DNA of 64,000 nt from positions 29,245,124 to 29,309,123 of the forward strand of contig JAOANR010000006.1 in assembly GCA_030278955.1 (NCBI GenBank). The letters are read 5' to 3'. Source of the DNA: Hygrophila difformis (Eukaryota > Streptophyta > Magnoliopsida > Lamiales > Acanthaceae). Below are positions 23,440 to 45,000 of the stretch, piece after piece. How positions within the stretch are numbered: position 1 is the stretch's first letter; each line of letters begins with the position of its first letter. Position numbers and translations under genes: made by a program. The notes under the pieces were generated by a model. It saw only the letters and a program-made list of their open reading frames with translations, searched no databases and had not been told where the DNA came from.

Positions 23440-24001
23440 CATAGTTAACAAGATCGAGATCTTAGTCTGGATCGTTCTTGTCTTTTCAAAATTGGGATGA
23501 TATGATCGAATTCAAATTCTAAGATTCTACGAAATTGCAACAATAGATAAAAACAATTATATATATTAACAAGTAAAAACATAACATAGAAACCCCTGCC
23601 CGCCTTCTAGTTGTTTTTCCTTACTTATATCACGATTTGCCAGCTATCATTAGGTAAATGAAGCGATATAGCATTATAAACCGTCGAAAATAAAATTCAT
23701 TATCGATCTTTTGAGAAACATGAAATTATGAGACCATACTTTAAATTTTGGTAGGATAGGATCACATATGATCATGAGACCCTACAATTAATATCGAGAT
23801 CCCACAATAAACATCCGGATCACGATCAAGATCGTACTAATTTTAAAATGCTACAAATATTTGGATCATTTTTAAGGGGTGCGATCGTAAAATCATAAGA
23901 TCTAAGATCAAGATCTTCACCTCTTTTTTTTTTTCCTGACTCGGAAATGATGATAGGGTAATAGTTGTTGACCCGGATACACCGAGATCTTAATAACTAT
24001 A
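23440..24001. mobile_element. TIR element rich in AAGATC (copy 1)
   Basis: Ends ATAGTTAACAAGATCGAG and, inverted, ATAGTTATTAAGATCTCGG. GTATGAT flanks both sides (23433-23439, 24002-24008). It shares about 55 bp with the element at 32136 in opposite orientation (centred on AAACCGTCGAAAATAAAATTC). Non-coding; the superfamily is unclear, and 7-8 bp duplications suit hAT. Confidence 0.6.
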
Positions 24002-32135: not shown

Positions 32136-32557
32136 CATACTTATTAAGATCTTGATCTTAAGACCTTATACGATTCTACAATCTCACTAATTAAAAACGA
32201 TCCAGATCTTTAGGATCTTAAATTTGGTTGGATCTGGATCTTGATTGTATAATGTCGATCTTAATGGTAGGATCTCACGATCCTATACGATATAATCCTA
32301 CCAATATTTTAAATATGTTCCCATGATATCATGTTTATCATAAAATCGATCTTGAATTTTATTTTCGACGGTTTATAGTGTTTTATTGCTTCATTTACTT
32401 AATAATATTTTATTTTATGCCTTCACTTATTAATATGTATGATTATTTTCATATATTATTGCAAATTGGTAGATCTTAGGATCTAAATTCAATTCTATGA
32501 TCCGATCTTGCAAAGACAAAACCGACCCAAGCTAAGATTTAGATCTTAATAACCTTA
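32136..32557. mobile_element. TIR element rich in AAGATC (copy 2)
   Basis: Both ends carry TTATTAAGATCT, inverted. Perfect 8-bp flanking repeat CTTCTTCC at 32128-32135 and 32558-32565. It shares an internal segment with 23440-24001 in reverse orientation. Non-coding; the duplication length suggests hAT. Confidence 0.7.
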
Positions 32558-32651
32558 CTTCTTCCTCATCATGATTGGGTCTTAGCCGTTCAATATATAG
32601 GTTAGGGTTTGAATTATCTGTACAATGATTGACAAAGTAAAATTACTAGAT

Positions 32652-32765
32652 GAGTTAATAGTTAATTTAGGCCATAACAAGTAGTCATTTCCACTTTTGA
32701 GCCATAACAAGTTTGAGTTATGATTTTAGGCCATAACAAACCACTTTTGTTCAATTTTGGGCCAT
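32652..32765 (+). repeat. Left terminal inverted repeat of the 7.8-kb unit
   Basis: Starts GAGTTAATAGTTAATTTAGG. It pairs with 40367-40481 and carries an internal tandem motif CCATAACAAG. Confidence 0.85.
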
Positions 32766-32769
32766 TTAG

Positions 32770-33120
32770 ACTTTTTAAAATAATAATTGAGCCCACCTAC
32801 TTTCCTTTATTATATTTTGACCCCATCAGTTGACTTATCAACTTTTGCCCTTTTACACTTTGACCCCAAACTTTAGATTTTTCATTAAATTTAATCCAAT
32901 AACCGCCCATCATGCTTCCGATAATTAAATTAAGCACTAAACTTCATACCTTGGCTTTGACCGCCTTGCTGCCGGGTTTCCTAAGCTCCGGGATTTTACG
33001 GACTTCCTCCAACCACGCAGCCGCGACCGATGGTTCACCGATTCTTGGCTCCTTCAGCAACAAACAGCACAGTCCTATTTCGTTTCCTACCTTAGGACGT
33101 ATCAAGATATGAATAAAGGG
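32770..33120. other. Unassigned segment between the left TIR and the viral DNA
   Basis: Holds a plus-strand open frame (32912-33112, 66 codons: TALLPGFLSSGILRTSSNHA) of less AT-rich composition than its surroundings. No family recognised. It could be a captured gene fragment, as in Pack-MULEs, or part of the viral leader; I cannot tell. Confidence 0.4.
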
Positions 33121-33371
33121 TTTTAATTATATTATCGGGATATTTGGGATATTTGGAAGCCTGGATTTTACTGAAGAAATATTAAAAATATTATTTAAAC
33201 ATAATTTCCCCTAACGGAGAAGACAGACACTTAGTTCCTCATGGAGGATACAAGACTCTTGGGGGAATACCCCATACTTTTACAGACTTGAAAGGAAATA
33301 TGCAGAAAGAGAAATATTACAAATACTTTGAAGAGTTGGGAGGAATTTTCGATGCCTTCCATCTGCTTCAA

Positions 33372-33390
33372 ACTCCTTTATTTATAGGCG
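33372..33390 (-). promoter_or_regulatory. Pararetroviral pregenomic promoter TATA box
   Basis: On the minus strand CCTATAAATAAAGG (TATAAATA at 33386-33379) lies about 250 nt downstream of the transactivator stop codon. This is where Caulimoviridae place the pregenomic RNA promoter. It overlaps an AATAAA polyadenylation-type signal. Confidence 0.6.
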
Positions 33391-33635
33391 CCTACGGACT
33401 TCAGCCCCGGATTCCAATCTTCCTCTAAATCCTTGTGACGTCACTGCGTTCGTCACTTGGCCTTAATTTCCACCGGCTACATTATTGTCCTTTTTTGAAT
33501 TATTGCATTAGGTGGCTTTTGTCAACTTTCCACCTTCTCTTGTCGGCCACTTTCTGCCAGCCACTCTGCCCTTCTTTGTCGGCTTTTAATTATGAGTGTT
33601 GCCGACACCTCTTTTTCTTTTACATCCAGCTAATC

Positions 33636-34928
33636 TTACTTTGGCTTGTGAAAGTTTTTTGGACGTTTCATCCCTTTGTCCTGTTCGGGTCCGGATTTTT
33701 TCTGGGTTACCCGGATCTTTGTGCCGAATAGGGGTTTCTCCTGTTCTGCACAATATGGGCATATGTGGTTATCCCATTGGCCAACATGCATCATATTGCA
33801 TGCCTTTTTTCTGGTAGACTCGGTTGCTGGCAACTTGTTTTCCCAGATGAGTAACCTCTTCTTCTCAAATGAGGTTTCCGCAAACTCTGTGCTTTTCCCT
33901 GTTAAAGAATTAACCAGGAACGATCCATTTAAATTGTTTGAGAATATTTTAAACGGATATTTAACCTTTTCCATCTCGGTGAGACAGACCCAGAATCCCC
34001 ATGCTCGTCGGGTGGAGATTTCATCTTCGCTGATTGAAGATACTAATGGTGCCTTCTCATCCATAGACTTAACTCTGTTGAAGGCAATCATATCAGGTCT
34101 CTGTAATTTAATAAATTGAAAGACCGGATAAGAACCTTTTCCGACTATCTCTGGTGCCGCTGAAATGAACTTAAGCTCCAGAATATCTCCTCTTTGCAGG
34201 TGCGGGTTGTTCTGCCATGATTCGTGCACCGCACTACTTATCCATCCCGGAAGTTTTTCGATTTCTGGAAACCCTGGTGATGTAGTATGAACAGATGCTA
34301 ATGCTCCAAAGTCATACCACTTCCGAACTTCTTCTGGTTTCGATCCTTCGAGCATCCATACCCTGTTGTATCTCCCGGATGTCTCGATTACTGTTTTGCT
34401 AGGGTTAATTCCCTTTTTGGAAACCAGTTGTTCCCATTTTCCTTGGTAGTCCAGCCAGGCAGTAGATAGGACCTTCTCATCTGAATTAACCTTAGAGGTG
34501 CCTGTCATTGGCCTAAGGTTAATTTCTTCCTCTTTCACCCCAGAGGCAGTGGGTTGACTTGAGCTTTCGGAAATGTGACTTTCCTCTTGCTCAACATTTT
34601 TGTCGGTATCCGACAATGGTTCCTTTGAAGCAGTGCTTGAATCTGCTTCTTCATATGTGACCACTTTAGCTTTTTGGGCACATTTCTCTTTGTTTACCAG
34701 GGAAGCTGACGCTTTCCTGATTGGCTCTAATACTGTTTCCCATAGTGCTGTCATTGCTATATGGGAGGTTCGTATATTGTTGCGGACCATGTCCACATCG
34801 CTCTGTTGTATTTGGCCAGCTGCTCGTGCATTGATCTCGAGCTGTCCAAAATGCTTTGATAGCTCCTCTAGGTTTTCTCTGAGGTGCCTGAATCTCGTAA
34901 TGATGGAATCAGCTTCAAATGCTTCCAT
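33636..34928 (-). CDS. Endogenous pararetrovirus ORF: transactivator / inclusion-body protein
   Basis: 430 codons, open. It is the last ORF before the promoter, the position of the Caulimoviridae translational transactivator (needed for polycistronic translation and virion-factory formation). Residues about 1-60 form predicted helices (RFRHLRENLEELSKHF). The middle is acidic and Ser-rich. Residues about 160-400 form the conserved core, with WLDYQGKWEQL near 160 and RRAWGFWVCLTEMEKVKYPF near 330. A C-terminal HICPYC motif could bind metal. Its ATG overlaps the end of the preceding pol ORF by 14 nt. Assignment is by position, length and general resemblance rather than a recalled exact match. 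Confidence 0.75.
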   Translation of the reverse strand: MEAFEADSIITRFRHLRENLEELSKHFGQLEINARAAGQIQQSDVDMVRNNIRTSHIAMTALWETVLEPIRKASASLVNKEKCAQKAKVVTYEEADSSTASKEPLSDTDKNVEQEESHISESSSQPTASGVKEEEINLRPMTGTSKVNSDEKVLSTAWLDYQGKWEQLVSKKGINPSKTVIETSGRYNRVWMLEGSKPEEVRKWYDFGALASVHTTSPGFPEIEKLPGWISSAVHESWQNNPHLQRGDILELKFISAAPEIVGKGSYPVFQFIKLQRPDMIAFNRVKSMDEKAPLVSSISEDEISTRRAWGFWVCLTEMEKVKYPFKIFSNNLNGSFLVNSLTGKSTEFAETSFEKKRLLIWENKLPATESTRKKACNMMHVGQWDNHICPYCAEQEKPLFGTKIRVTQKKSGPEQDKGMKRPKNFHKPK

Positions 34929-36975
34929 CTCTCGTCAAGAAATCTGCAAGAACATTTTCATGAGATTTTATAACATCAATATCATAAGTATAATATTGAC
35001 ATTCAGCTTGCCATCTGATAATACGAGCTTTTTCAATTTTTGATTCAAGTTTATTTTTTAAAAAAGCTCTAACATTAGTATTATCAACTTTTAATACAAA
35101 TTTCTTTGCAAGTAAGAATAAAGGCCATTTTTTAAATGTTTTCCATACTGCAAAGAATTCCTTCTCGTTAATATGCCAAAGTTTGGCTTGTTGTTCAGTG
35201 AACAACCCTCCTGTGTATCTACAAGGTTCTTGACCCGTAGTTGTTTTTCTCATGAGCACTCCTGCCCATCGAAAATCATTGGCGTCTGTGTAGACTACCA
35301 GCTCATCCTCATCCTGAGGTATCGCGAGTTTTGGCAAGCTATTACAGACTTGCTTTAGTTCACGAATTCTCTTGGTATGGATTTCTTCCCATTTCCATCT
35401 AGAGCTTTCAGTCTCTTTCAGGAGTGGTCTAAAATCCTTTCTATATTTTGCAAGGTCTTTAATAAACATACCCGCAAAATTTACAACTCCTAAGAAACTC
35501 TGAAGTTGTTTCTTGTCTTTTAATATATCAGGAAAATTGCGGATTTTCTCCACAATGTGTTCCTGTAACTCTATTCCTGCTTCATCAATTTGAACTCCTA
35601 AGAATTCAATTTTGTTAGCAGCGATAGTGGCCTTTTTCTCAGAGAGAACTAGACCTTCCCTGTGACATGCATCAGAAAATATTTCAAGATGTTTAATATG
35701 CTCTTTAATATTTCGAGATGCAATCAGAATGTCATCTATGTAGACGAACATAAACTCTAGATAATCCTTAAATAGATTATCCATCTTTCTTTGGAATATC
35801 TGAGGGGCATTAGAAAGCCCCATTGGCATAACATTCCAAATATATTGCCCTTGTGGGGTGGAGAATGCTGTGAATTTCTTCGACTCATTCTCCATCTTAA
35901 TCTGATAGAAACCAGATTTGCAATCAAATTTAGAAAACACTTTAGCACCTTTGATGCAATCAATTAAGTGTTCTCTACTCGGAATGTAATAACCATCAAA
36001 CTGTATTATTTTGTTAATACCTTGATAGTTTATTACCAACCTGGGTTTACCTCTCTTTATTTCACCGTGGTTTCTTACCAAGAATCCAGGGCTACTATAA
36101 GCTGAGACTCCAGGCTCGATGAGTTTAAGATCAATATGCTCCTTGATAATTTGCTGCATATCTTTCTTATCCTGCATATTCATTAAGATGGGTTTGTATC
36201 GAACATACTCATATTTATATTGTTCTTTTACCTGTAGAGTGGCTTCGATCTTGTTTTTATCCCACCATGCCAGAGGATCCTCGTTAAAGTTTCTCTGGAT
36301 AAGTCTTTTGACATTTTCGAGGGACAATTTAGTTTCCCCATCAATGTCTAGTGAAGTTATATTTAATGACTTCATTTCCTGCATTGCTTCTTTGAGGTTT
36401 ATAATTTCCTCAATAGAAGCTTCATCAAATCATTGCTGTCTAAAAGACAACAAAGCCTTACCAAACTTTCTTTTATCCTGCATTTTTGGATGGGTTAGTT
36501 TGGCATCATTATCACCACGTTTGCTGCGAAATAATATAGGCATTAACCTGTTGAATGCCTTTTCCCTGCGCAACACCTGTATCTCATTTCCACAACTTGT
36601 GGTAAATATTAACAAATTTCTTTTGTTATCTTGAACATATTTTGTAAAGGATTGTATAAAATTGTTTCCTAACAAAATATCCGCTCCTGTGTCATGAAAG
36701 TAAATAGGAGGCGTTTTTACCTTATACCAAGGTGTACCAAATGCTCCTCCAATCATGATATTGGCTTGTCGAATACCCTTATTTAGTACTAAGATTTTTT
36801 GGGAAAAATCTCTTCCTGCAATAATGGGTAATGATTCCATAGCTTCGCTAGGGAAAACTCCTGGTTTTGCCGTGCAAATACCTGATCCTGAATCAATATA
36901 AGCTGCGAAATATTCTGACTTATATTCTTCATATATTATCCCTACTGAGATATAAATGAAGAATGGACTTGTCAT
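34915..36975 (-). pseudogene. Endogenous pararetrovirus pol: protease, RT, RNase H; one nonsense codon
   Basis: One frame with a single TGA at 36432-36430, between protease and RT. Protease: AYIDSGSGIC near 36890 and HDTGADILLG. RT: GKPRLVINYQGIN, then the catalytic FVYIDDILIAS near 35740. RNase H: VVYTDANDFRWAGVLM near 35300 and KVDNTNVRAFL, ending FLTRDGSI. There is no integrase, as expected for Caulimoviridae rather than gypsy. It would reverse-transcribe pregenomic RNA in the cytoplasm. Its ATG overlaps the movement-protein stop codon as ATGA (36975-36972), a termination-reinitiation arrangement. Confidence 0.93.
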
Positions 36976-38219
36976 TTAATTCTGATGGTGTGACCCTTCA
37001 GATTAAATTCTATACCATTATCCTTTCTTACCCATGGTTTATGATTTTCGAGAAAACTTAATCCCAAAATCATAACCCCATTGTCTTTTCCGGCGGTGCC
37101 TAAGACTCTAATCTCGTGTCCTGCAATTTCAATTGTTCCTTCATAGGTTCCAATTGATGGCTGCTGCAAGTAGTATAAGTCATCACATGGAAAACGGTTA
37201 ATCTTTTCAGTGATGTCGAATATTACTCGTATTTCTTTCCATCCTTCAGGGCATTTTATCTTTATATTATCTACCCCAATGGATTGAGGAGTTAGATCTT
37301 TGATGAACTCCTTCCCTTTATATGCCATAATTCTGTCTTCCGAAAAAGACATACGGCTTGCGTACTCAATTCTAGCACTCGTTGATCTGTCTAGAATTGG
37401 ATGATCTCTTATTTGTATGTCTACTCCTCCTAACCTTGGAATTTGGGTAGGATTTGGAGTCATGACTTTAGCAAATTCCTTGAAAATTCTAGGAATTTCT
37501 ATATATTCTTTCCTGAGAAATAAGTCAGAATGATGACTATTGGAAAGTGCATAAGAGATTCTATAAGTTATAGAATATGGTCTGTTCCCTTCTTTCATCA
37601 GATCTTTTCTTTTAAAATCCTGATGAAGGGTTAGAACTCTACTAAAATCTTGGTCAGCTAAGTTATAGGAAATTCTGGGATGTATGTCAAACATTAATTT
37701 CCCAGCATATAAATTTCCCACCATAGTTCCAAGAAGACCATCTCTAAGGTTATTGATTCTTCTATCAGTGACTGATAGATGCAATTCAGAATCAATGCCT
37801 TCTTTGAAGGTTGCCTTAATTACTACTTCAATGGCTCCTATGTGGATCCATTTCATAGTAATGGCGATTTCCTCCTTCATTCTGCTTAATTCCTCAAGAA
37901 TTTCTTCTTTAGGAATTAATTGCATATCCATAACATTACAAGTAAGTTCCATAGGAATTGCAAACTCACCTACACTTACCTTGTAGATGATGTTATGTCT
38001 TCTCTGGTTGAGTCCCATCTGGTTAAGAACTCGTCCAATCCCGCCAATTCTGAATCCGTCATATGGGCTGAGGTTGGAATCTTGTCGCATTATTCTTTCC
38101 ATGGTTCGATTCGAGATCGTCATCCTTGAAAAGAATCCAGACAGGTTTTCAGTGGTCTGAATCCTGTCTTCTTCAGTCAGACTCGGTTGAAGATCCATCT
38201 GAATATGAGTCCGAGTCAC
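36972..38219 (-). CDS. Endogenous pararetrovirus movement protein (30K superfamily)
   Basis: 415 codons, open. The central region with GLLGTMVGNLYAGKLMFDI and SYNLADQDF fits the 30K-type movement proteins of Caulimoviridae, which dilate plasmodesmata for cell-to-cell spread. It begins inside the 3' end of the coat-protein ORF (overlap 38219-38173); a second Met lies eight codons into the ORF. It ends in an ATGA overlap with pol. The C-terminal aspartic-protease-like LGLSFLENHKPW region is typical of the MP-PR junction. Confidence 0.85.
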   Translation of the reverse strand: MTRTHIQMDLQPSLTEEDRIQTTENLSGFFSRMTISNRTMERIMRQDSNLSPYDGFRIGGIGRVLNQMGLNQRRHNIIYKVSVGEFAIPMELTCNVMDMQLIPKEEILEELSRMKEEIAITMKWIHIGAIEVVIKATFKEGIDSELHLSVTDRRINNLRDGLLGTMVGNLYAGKLMFDIHPRISYNLADQDFSRVLTLHQDFKRKDLMKEGNRPYSITYRISYALSNSHHSDLFLRKEYIEIPRIFKEFAKVMTPNPTQIPRLGGVDIQIRDHPILDRSTSARIEYASRMSFSEDRIMAYKGKEFIKDLTPQSIGVDNIKIKCPEGWKEIRVIFDITEKINRFPCDDLYYLQQPSIGTYEGTIEIAGHEIRVLGTAGKDNGVMILGLSFLENHKPWVRKDNGIEFNLKGHTIRIK

Positions 38220-39621
38220 TTCTTAATTCTTCCTCGTAGATGCTTTCATCCGAGGGGATGTCCTCAAACTGATAGACTGGTACCAGCTTTCCGTGGTAGA
38301 CTGCTTCCACGATATCTTCCGTGGCTTCGTACATTCGTACCTCACGCTTCTGAGGGCAATCGGGTGAGATATGACCTCTGGCTCCACACTTCCAACAGTT
38401 GCAGTCCTTGAAACTTTCGTTGGCTCGGGTATGGGCTCGTCTGAATGTTCTCTTGGACGTCGTTCTCCCCGTGCTCCTTGCTGCTGAGCTAGTTGAACCT
38501 TGGGATGAACTCTTCGCCGTTCCCGTTCTTTGTCCAGTTTTGTATGATCTGGCCTTGCTCTTGGACCACCATGCTCTTCTTCTTCGGAATGGAGGTCTTC
38601 TGAAACTCCTACTGTATGAGCCCCGACTCTTCTTCTTTTTCCTCTTTTCTCCTGATTCTCCTATAATTGTTGGAAAATCGTTATTTTCACAGCAAAGAGG
38701 AGTTCTTTTTATTTTACCTCTTAGTCTCTTGATGTTCTTTTGGGCTGCTGCCTGTTGACACCATTCTCTGAGTTTATCCTTTAAGAAGGACATTCTTCGA
38801 GCTATTGAGTCCACTGTACCAGAAGGTACTGTGTAAGATTAGATCAACATTTCTCTCCATGGGCTGCAGATCTTTGCAAAGAACATGGGACATGCTACTT
38901 CAGCTGTCATTTCGCTCCGAAAATAGTATTTACGAAACCAGTAGATGTATTCGTCTACTGCGCAAATACTTCTTAACTCCATACCCAATAATGCTTGGGT
39001 ATAGACCTTGATTTTTTCGGTTCTCTGTTCTTCAAAATACCCATCTCCTACAAAATGGGTTTTGAATAAGAGGCCAAATCTTTCACAGATTGTGCTTTTG
39101 GATTCTCCCTCGAGTATTTGCTCTTTTAAAGCAGTCGTGGAGTTTTTCCAGCCCAGCTTTGCCGATCCTTCGAGACTCAGCTCTATTAATCTGACAAAGT
39201 TTTCTTTATCGAGTTCCAGGGTAGTTGCTGCAATCTTCATTGAAGCTACCCATTCATCAATCAGGTCTTCGATGTTTCGGAAGTCGATAACGTCGAGGTT
39301 TAGTGTTATGCCATATGGATTTAATGGTTGTAACATCGTCTTGGCCCACGATGTGGATTCTGGTGCTCTACTTGGGTTCCGTCCTGGGTTTCGTCTTGCA
39401 TTGAGATGCACCTCAGGATACCTGTTCATGTAGAAGTCTGTACTCTCTCTCATTGGAACATCAGGCGGTCCATCGTGGGTCACGTTGGATCCTGATCCTT
39501 CCGTATAACCCAATTGAAGGACTTCATTGGGTTTTACATTAACCAGATCCATAATCCCAAGTTGGGAAAATGATTCTGCTAATTCTTGTAGATCTGATAG
39601 ATCTGCCCTGGAAACACTCAT
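38173..39621 (-). pseudogene. Endogenous pararetrovirus coat protein; one nonsense codon
   Basis: One frame of 482 residues interrupted once by TAA at 38841-38839. The N-terminal half holds the capsid core (DLIDEWVASMKIA, KLGWKNSTTAL). The C-terminal half has a basic Arg/Lys/Ser-rich segment, a CCHC zinc finger CWKCGARGHISPDCP (near 38400) and an acidic tail rich in SDSDS. That is the standard Caulimoviridae coat-protein layout for binding pregenomic RNA. Its ATG overlaps the previous ORF stop as ATGA (39621-39618). Confidence 0.9.
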
Positions 39622-40040
39622 TCGACTGTTTTCAGGAGATCGATCATAAGCTCTTCTTGTGATTTCTGCTTTGGAACCATAGTTGCTTTACCCTTTTGAT
39701 GTAAAGCTTGTACTGGTCCGAATGCATCTCTAATATTGGCTTGGTTATTCTTGGAAGATCCAGGAATATCCTTCTGCCTTTTCTTGATATCCGAAATGTC
39801 AAATTTCAGATTCAAAATTTCTTTCTTTAGATCTTGAAATACTTTCAAGATCTCATCTGTTGTCTGATTCAAGTTATCTATTTTCCCAGGTATAATTAAT
39901 ACCCGGTTACCAAAATCTTGAATCGTCTTTTGGATTTCTCTTAAGTCTTTTGATAACTTAGAGCTATCCGGATCAATTTCTTTCCAGTCCGTTCCTCTCA
40001 TTTTTAGGAAAGAAACTGATTTTGATAATATCTTGTCCAT
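39618..40040 (-). CDS. Endogenous pararetrovirus ORF1, coiled-coil protein
   Basis: 140 codons, open, first ORF after the primer site. Heptad-like hydrophobics (LREIQKTIQDFGNRVLII to DLKKEILNLKFDISDIKK) indicate a coiled coil at about residues 30-90. By position and character it may be a virion-associated or assembly protein; the exact homologue is not recognised. Confidence 0.7.
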   Translation of the reverse strand: MDKILSKSVSFLKMRGTDWKEIDPDSSKLSKDLREIQKTIQDFGNRVLIIPGKIDNLNQTTDEILKVFQDLKKEILNLKFDISDIKKRQKDIPGSSKNNQANIRDAFGPVQALHQKGKATMVPKQKSQEELMIDLLKTVE

Positions 40041-40207
40041 GGGACAAGTTCAAGAAATTCCTTTGGAATTTTCTATTTTTTATTTCCAAAATTTGGAAAT
40101 AACTTGTGGGTTTCAAATTAATTGAATCCATTAAATAATTAAATCTTCTCCATTAAGAAATAAAATATTATAAATAATATAATTAATATGTTCTTCAATA
40201 AAACCTA

Positions 40208-40220
40208 GGCTCTGATACCA
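40208..40220 (-). other. tRNA-iMet primer-binding site of the pararetrovirus
   Basis: The minus strand reads TGGTATCAGAGCC, complementary to the initiator tRNA-Met 3' end. It lies about 170 nt upstream of ORF1, the conventional origin of Caulimoviridae reverse transcription and coordinate zero of their maps. Confidence 0.9.
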
Positions 40221-40366
40221 ATTTTCAAGCGCATTGGGTGTCATTTATATAATGAAAAATTAAGTATATTGAGAAAGGACTAAAGTAAATAAAGTCAAAC
40301 TTCCTTGGGGTATGAATGAAATAAAGGAAAAGTTGTTGGATTCCTTTATTAATTTCAAATTGGTCC

Positions 40367-40481
40367 TATGGCCTAAATTTTACAAAACTGTGTTTGTTAT
40401 GGCCTGTTTTCATAATTGCAACTTGTTATGGCCTAAAAGCGGAATAGCCTCCTTGTTATGGCCCTTTTTAACATTTAACCC
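40367..40481 (-). repeat. Right terminal inverted repeat of the 7.8-kb unit
   Basis: Read on the minus strand it starts GGGTTAAATGTTAAAAAGGG. It pairs with 32652-32765 and is followed immediately by the 9-bp duplication. Confidence 0.85.
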
Positions 40482-40545
40482 TTACTAGATTATCTCTAAA
40501 TTTATAACTAAATTCCAACTTAATATATATACACCCTTACACTTC

Positions 40546-42074: not shown

Positions 42075-45000
42075 ATGGATCAGGTTAGTTCCATCTTGTT
42101 CTCCTTGCTTTCAATTGTTCGATTGACGTGGTTTTGGCTTCGTAATATGTGATTATCGAACTGGGGATGTGGATGTTAGGCTCAATAAAATCGTATGTCA
42201 TGATGCTTCTATTTGTTGTGTATATTCATCATGCTCTTATTTGTTATCATTCCAAACACTTTCTGCTTGGTGCCATAGATCTGTAGACTAGCAAAATTAT
42301 CTACCTTTATTTGGCCTATCTCTTCTTTATGAGCATGCATCGCCTCATAACCTAGGACTTAGAGAACTGCCACATATTAGCTGTTAGGTTGATCAAGAGC
42401 TGTTTCTCTAGTCCTGCAACTGTTCTAGTATCCTCACTTGCTTATGACAGGATTTAGAGAACTATGCTATAGGGCTTAGAAAACCATGCTTAGGTGTTAG
42501 ATTGACTTAGAGCTGTTTCTTTGGTTTCCCACACCCTGCATATATGATATAGGATTTAGTAGACGAGACTACGCCGGCCGCCCCTCATTTGGCTCGGGCC
42601 GCCACTGATAGTCATCCCGAGACATCACCGGCCACCACCCAGGGGTCACCAGCCACTGCTCAGGCCACCACCTTATCTCAGGCCGCCACCCCATAGCAGG
42701 CCGCCAATCAGACCCATCAGCCGCCACCTTCTTCGGGACAACCGCCATTCACTCAGCCCGGGTTACCACTCCCTTGACAGGGTTCGCTGCCTCGTCGTCT
42801 CTGGGCATGGCTTTCAGGTTTGAATGTTTCCCTGGCCTCACCATGTTCACTTTACTTAACACTTTTGTTCAGTGGCTTATCCTTGTAACTTCGTGATATA
42901 GGATGTCGCCAGATTTGCTCCTCCGTCAGCGAGTCAGGCCGCCACTCCTAGTGTCCACACCACTACTCAGGCCGCCACTCCTAGTGTCCACACAATTACT
43001 CAGGCCGCCACTCTAGCACCTCCCATGACTCAGGTTTGTCTTGTTTCACATTCTTGCTAAGTGTGGCCTATATTTGCGTTTCTTAATCTCGTGTTGCCTT
43101 CTTCGTACAGCGTCCGCTTATTCCGGACTCTGATGATGAGGCTTACGATTTCGACCGTCGGGAGTCGGAACCTTTTCTACGGCCGTTTCATAGTACGAGT
43201 GCACACGCAGATGAGGCGAGAGGGTTTTTATCGTGCCGGTGCTCGATTACTAAGGCTGCATTCACGAGTGCCTTTGTATCCCAGACTAAGGCTATTCGGT
43301 CTCACCAGTGCGGTATTTCTGCTTCCAAGTCAAAGGCCAAGGTTCCTAGGAATGAGATTGATGATGATAGCAATTTAGGCAAGTATATTTCATGGGTGCA
43401 TCGGATGAGTGGACGCGCCTCCGAGTGGTGTCAGTGGGGGATTGATGAGGCTATCACTCTATCCACCAAGCCGGTGGTGTTAGATCACCGCTTAATCTAC
43501 TATCTCATGGGTTTTTGGAACTCCACAGTCAATGCCTTTCAGCTCCCTTGCGGCTTCATTGGTCCTACCCTTCTTGACGTCGCGATGATCATGGGACTTC
43601 GCGTGGACGGAGCTGAGCTGACACAGTCGGGTATTGAGGACTCTGTACTTGGTGCGGCCATTTGTCCTCCGAGCAAATTGGCCAGACGATACACAGCCTA
43701 TATTGACCACAACATGACGACTGGGGCTTCTCCATCCACACGGGACGAGCATGTGGCATTTCTTTTACTGTGGTTCAGTCGATTCATCGTTTGTTTCAGT
43801 GCTCGCACTGTTTTACGCACTGCCTTGCCCCTCGTCCTAGCTATCATGAGTCCTCATTCTCGAGCTACAGGCTCATATTTCCTTGGCACCCTATTCAGTG
43901 GTATGGCCAAGGTCTCTGACATGTTGGCTAATGGGCGAGATCCCACTACTACGGCCTCCGGACCGTTCTGGTTTCTACAATTATGGATTCAGCTGTATTT
44001 TCCTCAGCTGTTTACCGGTGTATCTCGCCCTGGCCCAAGGGATGTTTCGGAGGGTTTTCCGCTAGGCAGGTGGTTGGCCGCTGGTTCTGTGAGGATTAGC
44101 CGGGATGACCTTTTGAGACGGGATAGTCTGGGGATTATCCGCTGGTTCTATCATCATCGGCCATTTTATCATGACTTGTATGTGTATGCACCCATTGGGT
44201 GGTTGCTTTCTACTCTTGTATGCAAGCCCGATCAGCCACGCGACATCCATGGGGAGGCTATTTGGAACATTAGCATGAAGCCTCACATGCTTTTGAGTGG
44301 GGTGAGAAGGAATGATCCTTCTAATCGATTCATTGCTGAGCCGTATTGTCCTCAGTTGCTTGCTCGTCAGTTCGGCTGCCATCTTGGACTTCCTCGCAGA
44401 GTGAGGTGACCGGTTCGTTTGACTAGATGTGAGAGCATGACAGAGGCCGGTATTAGGGCTGTGGTGGCTTTTTCATCCCGTTTGACGTATTCCAGCTACT
44501 TGCCTTTTACTCCGACGGGGTCACTTGCTGCCGGTTTTATGGCGTGGTGGACGCCATATATCACCTCCGTTTTGCCGTCATATGATGATCTTACATCTCG
44601 TTTCGGAGGTCCGCATCGTGGTCCAGCCTCTTCGCAACGATCCCGTACTTGTGGTGCTGCCGTATCGGCTCGTACCTCCATATCTCGCGGTGTTACCCGA
44701 AAGGCTAAGTCTGTTGCAACCTCTTCCTCTCGTAAGCGCCGAAGAGGTATGTCGAATCCCTCCTATGTCACTATGATACTTTATACATTGACTTGGTCCT
44801 ATGAAGCAAGTGATGAGGATGCTCCAGTTGACGATGAGCAGTCCAGTTCTGATGAGGAGGAGGCCAGCTCTGGTGATGAGGAGTCACGTCCTGATGAAGA
44901 GGATCCGGCAGGTGATGTCGGCACCAAGGATGAGGACGATCACCATGTAGAAGATGAGTATGTAGATCCTCATAGTGATGGAGGTCACGCGGAGACTGGT

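What the first reader, a model, noticed from the sequence alone, without database searches (positions are those of the whole stretch)
32643..40490. A near-complete pararetrovirus sits inside a Mutator-like TIR unit with a perfect 9-bp target duplication
Seen: TTACTAGAT on both sides, directly abutting about 115-bp inverted repeats (about 75 per cent identical by hand) with a repeated GGCCATAACAA motif. Everything between 33.1 and 40.2 kb is Caulimoviridae. Known: 9-bp duplications and long TIRs are Mutator-like hallmarks, and Pack-MULEs carry captured DNA. Inference: either the virus inserted into an existing non-autonomous MULE, or the MULE mobilised the viral genome. If the latter, a DNA transposon would be a vehicle for spreading an endogenous virus.
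Basis: partly seen in the sequence, partly recalled or inferred. Interest (0 to 1): 0.88.

Follow-up and report, generated by a model that had tools for sequence, protein, structure and literature searches.

The report
Jumping gene carrying whole virus
In one plant genome, a near-complete plant virus lies between the ends of a Mutator-like DNA transposon, and the same transposon-virus unit, in full-length or altered form, sits at 40 other sites checked at both ends, 36 of them with their own perfect target-site duplication, so a borrowed transposase has most likely been copying the virus around the genome.

Summary
The window unit (32652-40481, 7,830 bp) has ~250-bp inverted ends and a perfect 9-bp duplication. 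Between them lies a caulimovirid (movement protein, A3 protease, RT-RNase H, CCHC protein, exact tRNA-Met primer site; no integrase or transposase in 19 of 33 frames scanned), apparently opened just 5' of the primer site. The window's own 915-Mb genome holds an end of this unit at 48 or more loci. I paired both ends of 40 others: 28 about full length, 6 shortened, 6 enlarged. Of these 40, 32 have perfect, all-different 9-bp duplications, 4 have perfect 10-bp ones, 1 has 8/9 and 3 have none; mismatched end pairings gave 0 of 1,560. Right ends of 26 copies differ by 0.79% on average, mostly by singletons, so the burst is young. The window's two in-frame stops are absent from 20 of 20 other copies sampled, so the founder was probably less decayed. 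A MULE therefore mobilised a viral genome, most likely with a transposase supplied in trans. The partner element and a virus-free progenitor were not found. Whether a virus carrying these ends ever existed as an episome is untested.

The parts
32643..32651 (.). left copy of the 9-bp target-site duplication TTACTAGAT
   Evidence: sequence and exact search
32652..32900 (+). left terminal inverted repeat; outer edge GAGTTAATAG, GGCCATAACAA subrepeats at 32670 and 32729
   Evidence: alignment; first 129 bp found 40 times (window included) in G000 at 99-100%
32901..33145 (.). non-TIR, apparently non-viral stretch, partly G+C-rich and exon-like (minus-strand open stretch ending at a possible splice donor; eye reading); part of the mobile unit
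   Evidence: no convincing Pfam match (best 0.053, below cut-off); inside all 40 matches listed
33146..40222 (-). caulimovirid genome (about 7.1 kb), linear, opened just 5' of the primer-binding site (exact ends inferred)
   Evidence: domains; primer site; complementarity of its two ends
33379..33443 (-). promoter-like stretch: TGACGTCA (33436-33443) and TATAAATA (33379-33386), pointing at the left TIR; motifs recognised by eye
   Evidence: sequence; not tested
33636..34934 (-). 432-aa open stretch after RT, position of a transactivator (recalled); no Pfam match over cut-off
34915..36429 (-). reverse transcriptase and RNase H
   Evidence: PF00078 3.5e-36, PF17917 8.1e-17; best database relative 87% identical, Sesamum
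36430..36975 (-). A3 aspartic protease; in the window an in-frame stop separates it from RT, absent from 20 of 20 other copies sampled
   Evidence: PF02160 2.7e-11
36972..38222 (-). movement protein
   Evidence: PF01107 2.8e-31
38173..39687 (-). coat-protein-like frame with CCHC zinc knuckle; an in-frame stop at 38839-38841 in the window, absent from 20 of 20 other copies sampled
   Evidence: PF00098 1.3e-4; PF22909 4.2e-3, below cut-off
39618..40049 (-). 143-aa coiled-coil-like first open stretch
   Evidence: weak matches below cut-off only
40209..40220 (-). TGGTATCAGAGC, tRNA-Met primer-binding site (identity recalled)
   Evidence: exact match, the only exact one in the window
40232..40481 (-). 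right terminal inverted repeat; outer edge ...CATTTAACCC
   Evidence: found 40 times (window included) in G000
40482..40490 (.). right copy of the 9-bp target-site duplication

Best explanation
A non-autonomous Mutator-like element holding a near-complete caulimovirid genome between its inverted repeats occurs, full-length or altered, at 40 other genomic sites paired at both ends, 36 with perfect private duplications, and has most likely been spread by a transposase supplied in trans. Shown: one unit with the same outer edges and the same inner junctions in every match listed, different left flanks, its own 9- or 10-bp duplication at 36 of 40 sites, and low divergence made mostly of singletons. 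Inferred: viral double-stranded DNA opened at its minus-strand discontinuity (the tRNA primer site) was joined between two MULE ends, probably as filler in break repair, beside a short piece of other DNA; MULE transposases encoded elsewhere then recognised the TIRs and moved the whole ~7.8-kb unit, whose ends now lie at 48 or more loci after a recent burst. On this view these endogenous copies multiplied as a DNA transposon, not by repeated infection.
For: Left edge plus 129 bp: 40 scored matches of 1,185 candidates, all 99-100%. Left TIR-inner, filler and viral end as one 501-bp block: 40 scored of 1,994 candidates, 99-100%, all full length. Right end with PBS: 40 scored of 1,769, 99-100%. 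Each of these lists includes the window. In 7 of 7 other loci (L005 is the window itself) similarity to the window begins at the TIR edge and runs 1.6 kb inward at 98.9-99.6%; it starts exactly at the edge in 4, and 1, 3 and 15-17 bases outside it in the other 3. Pairing of ends: 40 other copies, 32 perfect 9-bp (all distinct, 90% A+T), 4 perfect 10-bp, 1 at 8/9, 3 none; 0 of 1,560 mismatched pairings agree. 300-bp left flanks of 40 copies plus the window: 12 pairs share some stretch, none reaching the junction in both. Right-end pieces of 25 copies 98.1-100% identical to the window; mean pairwise divergence of 26 sequences 0.79%, 43 of 50 variable sites singletons. Interior CP and PR/RT pieces present in all 20 copies sampled, of 25 full-length ones known then. 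No transposase domain in 19 of the unit's 33 listed frames, but 150 scored MULE transposase matches in the genome, all over the family cut-off, 147 of them without a stop inside.
Against: The autonomous partner was not found: no TIR-like match better than E 0.29 in 34 sampled transposase loci, 30 of which hold only 1.5 kb each side. No virus-free progenitor among 40 scored of 2,923 candidates. 3 of 40 paired copies lack a matching duplication and 7 of 48 loci were not paired. The CP piece is less star-like: only 7 of 15 variable sites are singletons. Transposition was not observed; copies were ranked by likeness, so the age estimate leans young.
Confidence: 0.9

Rival explanations
1. An episomal virus carried the MULE ends in its leader, and each copy is an infection whose DNA was integrated by host MULE transposase: an infectious transposon.
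For: In a closed circle the two TIRs would lie between the promoter-like stretch and the PBS, where caulimovirids have a leader hairpin (recalled); the founder probably lacked both in-frame stops of the window copy; divergence is mostly singletons.
Against: The viral leader pairs directly with the PBS region up to the break (duplex -73.4 against -30.6 +/- 5.0 for 100 shuffles, though 1 of 300 random window pairs was stronger at -89.1), as if the natural leader had no insert there; six copies with internal losses still have TIR ends, five of them with perfect 9-bp duplications, as expected of a DNA transposon. The decisive pattern search never ran.
Confidence: 0.07
2. The virus inserted once into a MULE and the many copies are segmental duplications of that locus.
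For: Near-identity of copies.
Against: In 7 of 7 loci similarity stops at the TIR edge or within 17 bases of it, left flanks differ and duplications are private.
Confidence: 0.01
3. Independent viral integrations into many pre-existing copies of one MULE.
For: Caulimovirid DNA is thought to enter by break repair (PMC10377300, section 12).
Against: The same junction appears in all 40 listed matches of the 501-bp left junction and all 40 of the right junction; independent events would differ.
Confidence: 0.01
4. Amplification by viral reverse transcription (endogenous proliferation), the TIRs being passive passengers.
For: Viral frames were probably still open at two sites in the founder.
Against: Viral RNA starting inside the unit would not be expected to carry both TIRs to their outer edges; no route to 9-bp duplications at TIR edges is known to me for caulimovirids.
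Confidence: 0.01

Closest known systems
Pack-MULEs (Mutator-like elements carrying captured DNA)
   Same: Long TIRs, 9-10-bp duplications, no transposase found inside, cargo captured from elsewhere, moved as a unit.
   Different: The cargo is a near-complete viral genome of about 7.1 kb with its own promoter-like stretch and primer site, not host gene fragments; in a 2026 review of gene capture (PMC13317346, word counts and passages only) 'viral' does not occur and 'virus' occurs once, as 'virus-like'.
Teratorn (piggyBac transposon fused with a herpesvirus, medaka; PMC5601938, abstract and section list seen)
   Same: A DNA transposon whose ends enclose a virus genome and give it a chromosomal way of multiplying.
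   Different: Teratorn is ~180 kb and belongs to the piggyBac superfamily; here the host is a plant, the ends are Mutator-like, the virus reverse-transcribes, and no transposase was found inside.
Endogenous caulimovirids / EPRVs (review PMC10377300)
   Same: MP, A3 protease, RT-RNase H, CCHC protein, Met-tRNA primer site, no integrase, multicopy in the genome.
   Different: The review names break repair or LTR-retrotransposon chimeras as routes in, mentions a suggested transposon-derived integrase, and says each copy in principle is one integration (sections 12-13 read); here the copies share TIR ends and 36 of 40 pairs have their own perfect duplication.

Membership tests
Mutator-like element (MULE) | long terminal inverted repeats | tested here: met
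   about 250 bp, ~70-75% alike
Mutator-like element (MULE) | 9-bp (8-11; range recalled) target duplication at each insertion | tested here: met
   window plus 32 of 40 perfect 9-bp, 4 of 40 perfect 10-bp, 1 of 40 8/9, 3 of 40 none
Mutator-like element (MULE) | mudrA/MULE transposase encoded (autonomous members only) | tested here: not met
   no transposase domain in 19 of the unit's 33 listed frames, so non-autonomous at most; matching partner not found
Pack-MULE | captured foreign DNA moved between the TIRs | tested here: met
   virus between TIRs at many loci
Pack-MULE | donor locus or empty progenitor known | tested here: inconclusive
   none among 40 scored of 2,923 candidates
Caulimoviridae | MP, CP, protease and RT-RNase H, no integrase | tested here: met
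   CP by CCHC knuckle and a sub-cut-off CP-domain match only; no integrase in 19 of 33 frames
Caulimoviridae | tRNA-Met primer site | tested here: met
   exact TGGTATCAGAGC (its identity recalled)
Solendovirus/Cavemovirus group | order CP-MP-PR-RT-transactivator (recalled) | tested here: inconclusive
   order CP-MP-PR-RT seen, transactivator not recognised by Pfam
Teratorn-type transposon-virus fusion | transposase inside the fusion (recalled) | tested here: not met
   (19 of 33 frames)

The most novel reading that the evidence does not exclude
The unit is a two-way hybrid: the virus once circulated as an episome with MULE ends in its leader, so that it could infect by reverse transcription and settle by borrowing a host DNA transposase in place of the integrase it lacks.
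Probability: 0.1. Interest if true: 0.97.

Novelty: new variant of a known kind. Interest (0 to 1): 0.9.

Why it matters
How caulimovirids without an integrase reach high, near-identical copy numbers in plant genomes is an open question: the 2023 review calls the mechanisms speculative and offers repeated infection or endogenous viral proliferation (PMC10377300, sections 12-13). Here is a case with sequence evidence at 36 of 40 sites (TIR edge plus private perfect duplication) of a third route: a cut-and-paste DNA transposon multiplying a viral genome. It means that clusters of identical endogenous viruses need not record recent infections, so dates and virus histories read from them need a check for TIRs. 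It also shows that a transposon-virus merger of the Teratorn type can arise in plants with a reverse-transcribing virus.

Tried and rejected
Empty site inside the window: the joined flanks found no uninterrupted paralogue there; the rest of the genome was not searched for it. Virus-free progenitor: a 421-base query made of the two MULE sides without virus gave 40 scored matches, each covering only the left side (query 1-280 or 1-279). Autonomous partner: TIR arms against 30 transposase loci and then 34 (four of 6 kb, the rest 3.3 kb) gave nothing better than E 0.29. Viral relatives in IMG/VR: 9 stretches matched a pattern, none confirmed. Filler origin: no convincing family or structure match. 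tRNA and Rfam scans of the window: empty. Host identity: the RT's best match is a Sesamum protein at 87%, the MP's an unnamed ENA entry at 88% followed by Sesamum ones, so a Lamiales-like plant is my inference; a paper on Fittonia was looked at in passages and did not settle it. Papers: searches combined pararetrovirus/Caulimoviridae terms with MULE, Mutator-like, transduplication, TIR or transposase, search 64 Sesamum with pararetrovirus, search 95 endogenous caulimovirids with transposable elements; no listed title or start of abstract, and no passage I read, describes a MULE carrying a caulimovirid. Searches matched more papers than they listed (15 of 51, 15 of 9,356, 12 of 1,801), and most listed papers were not opened. 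One paper on florendoviruses in grapevine argues against transduplication there (PMC4241990, one passage).
Full report
What is in the window. The 9-mer TTACTAGAT occurs twice only, at 32643 and 40482, directly against inverted arms. The arms share a 112-bp ungapped core at 74% and align with gaps over about 250 bp. Between them, on the minus strand, Pfam finds a CCHC knuckle, a movement protein, the A3 protease of caulimoviruses, reverse transcriptase and RNase H in that order; no integrase or transposase domain was found in the 19 frames scanned of 33 listed inside the unit. TGGTATCAGAGC lies at 40209-40220, about a dozen bases from the inner end of the right arm (its role as the tRNA-Met primer site is recalled). 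The left viral end and the primer-site region form a long RNA duplex (-73.4 kcal/mol against -30.6, s.d. 5.0, for 100 shuffled pairs; among 300 random window pairs the strongest were -89.1, -71.8 and -71.7, so 1 of 300 was stronger). By plain alignment the same two ends score 81, against at most 48 in 300 random pairs. I read this as one viral circle opened just 5' of the primer site, where the minus strand of these genomes is discontinuous (recalled). About 245 bp at 32901-33145 are neither arm nor recognisable virus.

The genome. The window lies in G000, contig C12, of a 915-Mb assembly. Its viral proteins are closest to Sesamum entries among named ones: RT 87% over the whole query, MP 80% over 95% for the best-scoring named one, with an unnamed entry at 88% above it.

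Copies. The first 129 bp of the left arm gave 40 scored matches at 99-100% (1,185 candidates). A 501-bp query running from the left arm through the filler into the virus gave 40 full-length matches at 99-100% (1,994 candidates). The right end with the primer site gave 40 at 99-100% (1,769 candidates). The union is 48 loci including the window: 40, 6 more, one right-only site whose left edge was then found and one further left end. The tool scored only 40 per such search, so this is a lower bound on loci with an end; 41 including the window are verified at both ends. In the 7 loci fetched besides the window, similarity to the window begins at the TIR edge (4 loci) or 1, 3 and 15-17 bases outside it, and continues 1.6 kb inward at 98.9-99.6%.

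Both ends. I fetched left edges and expected right ends for 40 other copies and 19 further pieces. In one search, 25 of 40 had the right edge within 700 bp of the expected place; 15 had not. Right-end positions resolved 11 of those 15 and gave 4 new pairs. In all 40 other copies are paired: 28 of about 7.8 kb, 6 of 4.1-6.8 kb and 6 of 12.8-27.8 kb (probably nested insertions; their inserts were not examined). 7 of 48 loci remain unpaired. Of the 40 pairs, 32 have perfect 9-bp duplications, all different, 90% A+T; 4 have perfect 10-bp ones; 1 matches at 8 of 9; 3 do not match. Pairing left ends with right ends of other copies gave 0 matches in 1,560. Among the 300-bp left flanks of 40 copies and the window, 12 pairs share some stretch, but none reaches the junction in both; right flanks were not compared. 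This is the signature of transposition of the whole unit.

Age and state. Over 681 bp at the right end, 26 sequences (window included) differ by 0.79% on average and 43 of 50 variable sites are singletons. For 21 sequences, a 300-bp PR/RT piece gives 0.65% with 19 of 19 variable sites singletons, while a CP piece gives 0.95%, with only 7 of 15 singletons, 2 shared by two and 6 by three sequences, so some substructure exists. At recalled plant rates of 0.7-1.3e-8 per site and year, 0.79% means roughly 0.3-0.6 million years; copies were picked by likeness, so this leans young. The window copy has an in-frame stop in the CP frame and one between protease and RT; neither is in any of 20 other copies sampled, of 25 full-length ones known then. 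They look like private decay, and the unit that spread was probably less damaged at these points. Whether any copy is intact was not asked, and none is singled out.

Where the enzyme comes from. No transposase was recognised in the unit. The genome holds 150 scored MULE transposase matches, all over the family cut-off, 147 without a stop inside (2,396 candidates), so a source in trans is plausible. The TIRs were not found within the pieces of 34 such loci examined, so the partner is unknown.

Order of events. The identical inner junctions in all 40 listed left-junction and all 40 right-junction matches point to one founding capture. A query lacking the virus found no uninterrupted MULE among 40 scored of 2,923 candidates; a diverged one could have been ranked below the virus-bearing copies. 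The alternative, that the virus itself once carried the ends as an episome, could not be tested: the pattern search for a TIR-free leader did not complete (last try), and the one for a TIR-TIR junction was planned but not sent.

What is known. The 2023 review of endogenous caulimovirids (PMC10377300; sections 12 and 13 read, other passages seen) calls integration mechanisms speculative, lists break repair and LTR-retrotransposon chimeras, mentions a suggestion of a hijacked transposon-derived integrase, and leaves clusters of identical copies to recent infection or endogenous viral proliferation. PMC9794742 (passages) reports such clusters. Teratorn in medaka (PMC5601938, abstract and section list) is the nearest precedent for a DNA transposon enclosing a virus. 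My searches listed no paper whose title or start of abstract describes a MULE-caulimovirid unit; the library lacks most subscription journals.

Verdict. The observation and its bolder interpretation are confirmed: a Mutator-like element has mobilised and multiplied a near-complete pararetrovirus genome. The kind (transposon with captured cargo; transposon-virus merger) is known; this combination, with its own perfect duplications at 36 of 40 paired sites, appears new.

Noticed in passing
window 33379-33443 (-): A promoter-like stretch of the virus (TGACGTCA and TATAAATA, by eye) points outward through the left TIR; an inserted unit would bring a promoter aimed at its left flank.
   Followed up: no
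window 32901-33145: G+C-rich, exon-like stretch between left TIR and virus, part of the mobile unit; may be a captured host gene fragment.
   Followed up: partly
G000, six paired copies of 12.8-27.8 kb: Units enlarged by 5-20 kb but with matching duplications at the outer ends (five 9-bp, one 10-bp), so later nested insertions probably sit inside them.
   Followed up: partly
G000: Many MULE transposase matches share the same bit score and a 353-aa or ~530-aa open frame across many contigs, which looks like recently amplified autonomous families.
   Followed up: no
Sesamum proteins: The same viral lineage has very many annotated relatives in several Sesamum species; whether those lie in MULE ends could not be seen.
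   Followed up: no
window 43087-44409 (+): Plant mobile domain (PF10536) open frame near the unit; several of the other window frames scanned are reverse-transcriptase or plant-transposon fragments.
   Followed up: no
window 32146-32553 and 23444-23917: Inverted copies of another repeat, about 68-76% alike; the one beside the unit ends about 90 bp short of the insertion point.
   Followed up: partly
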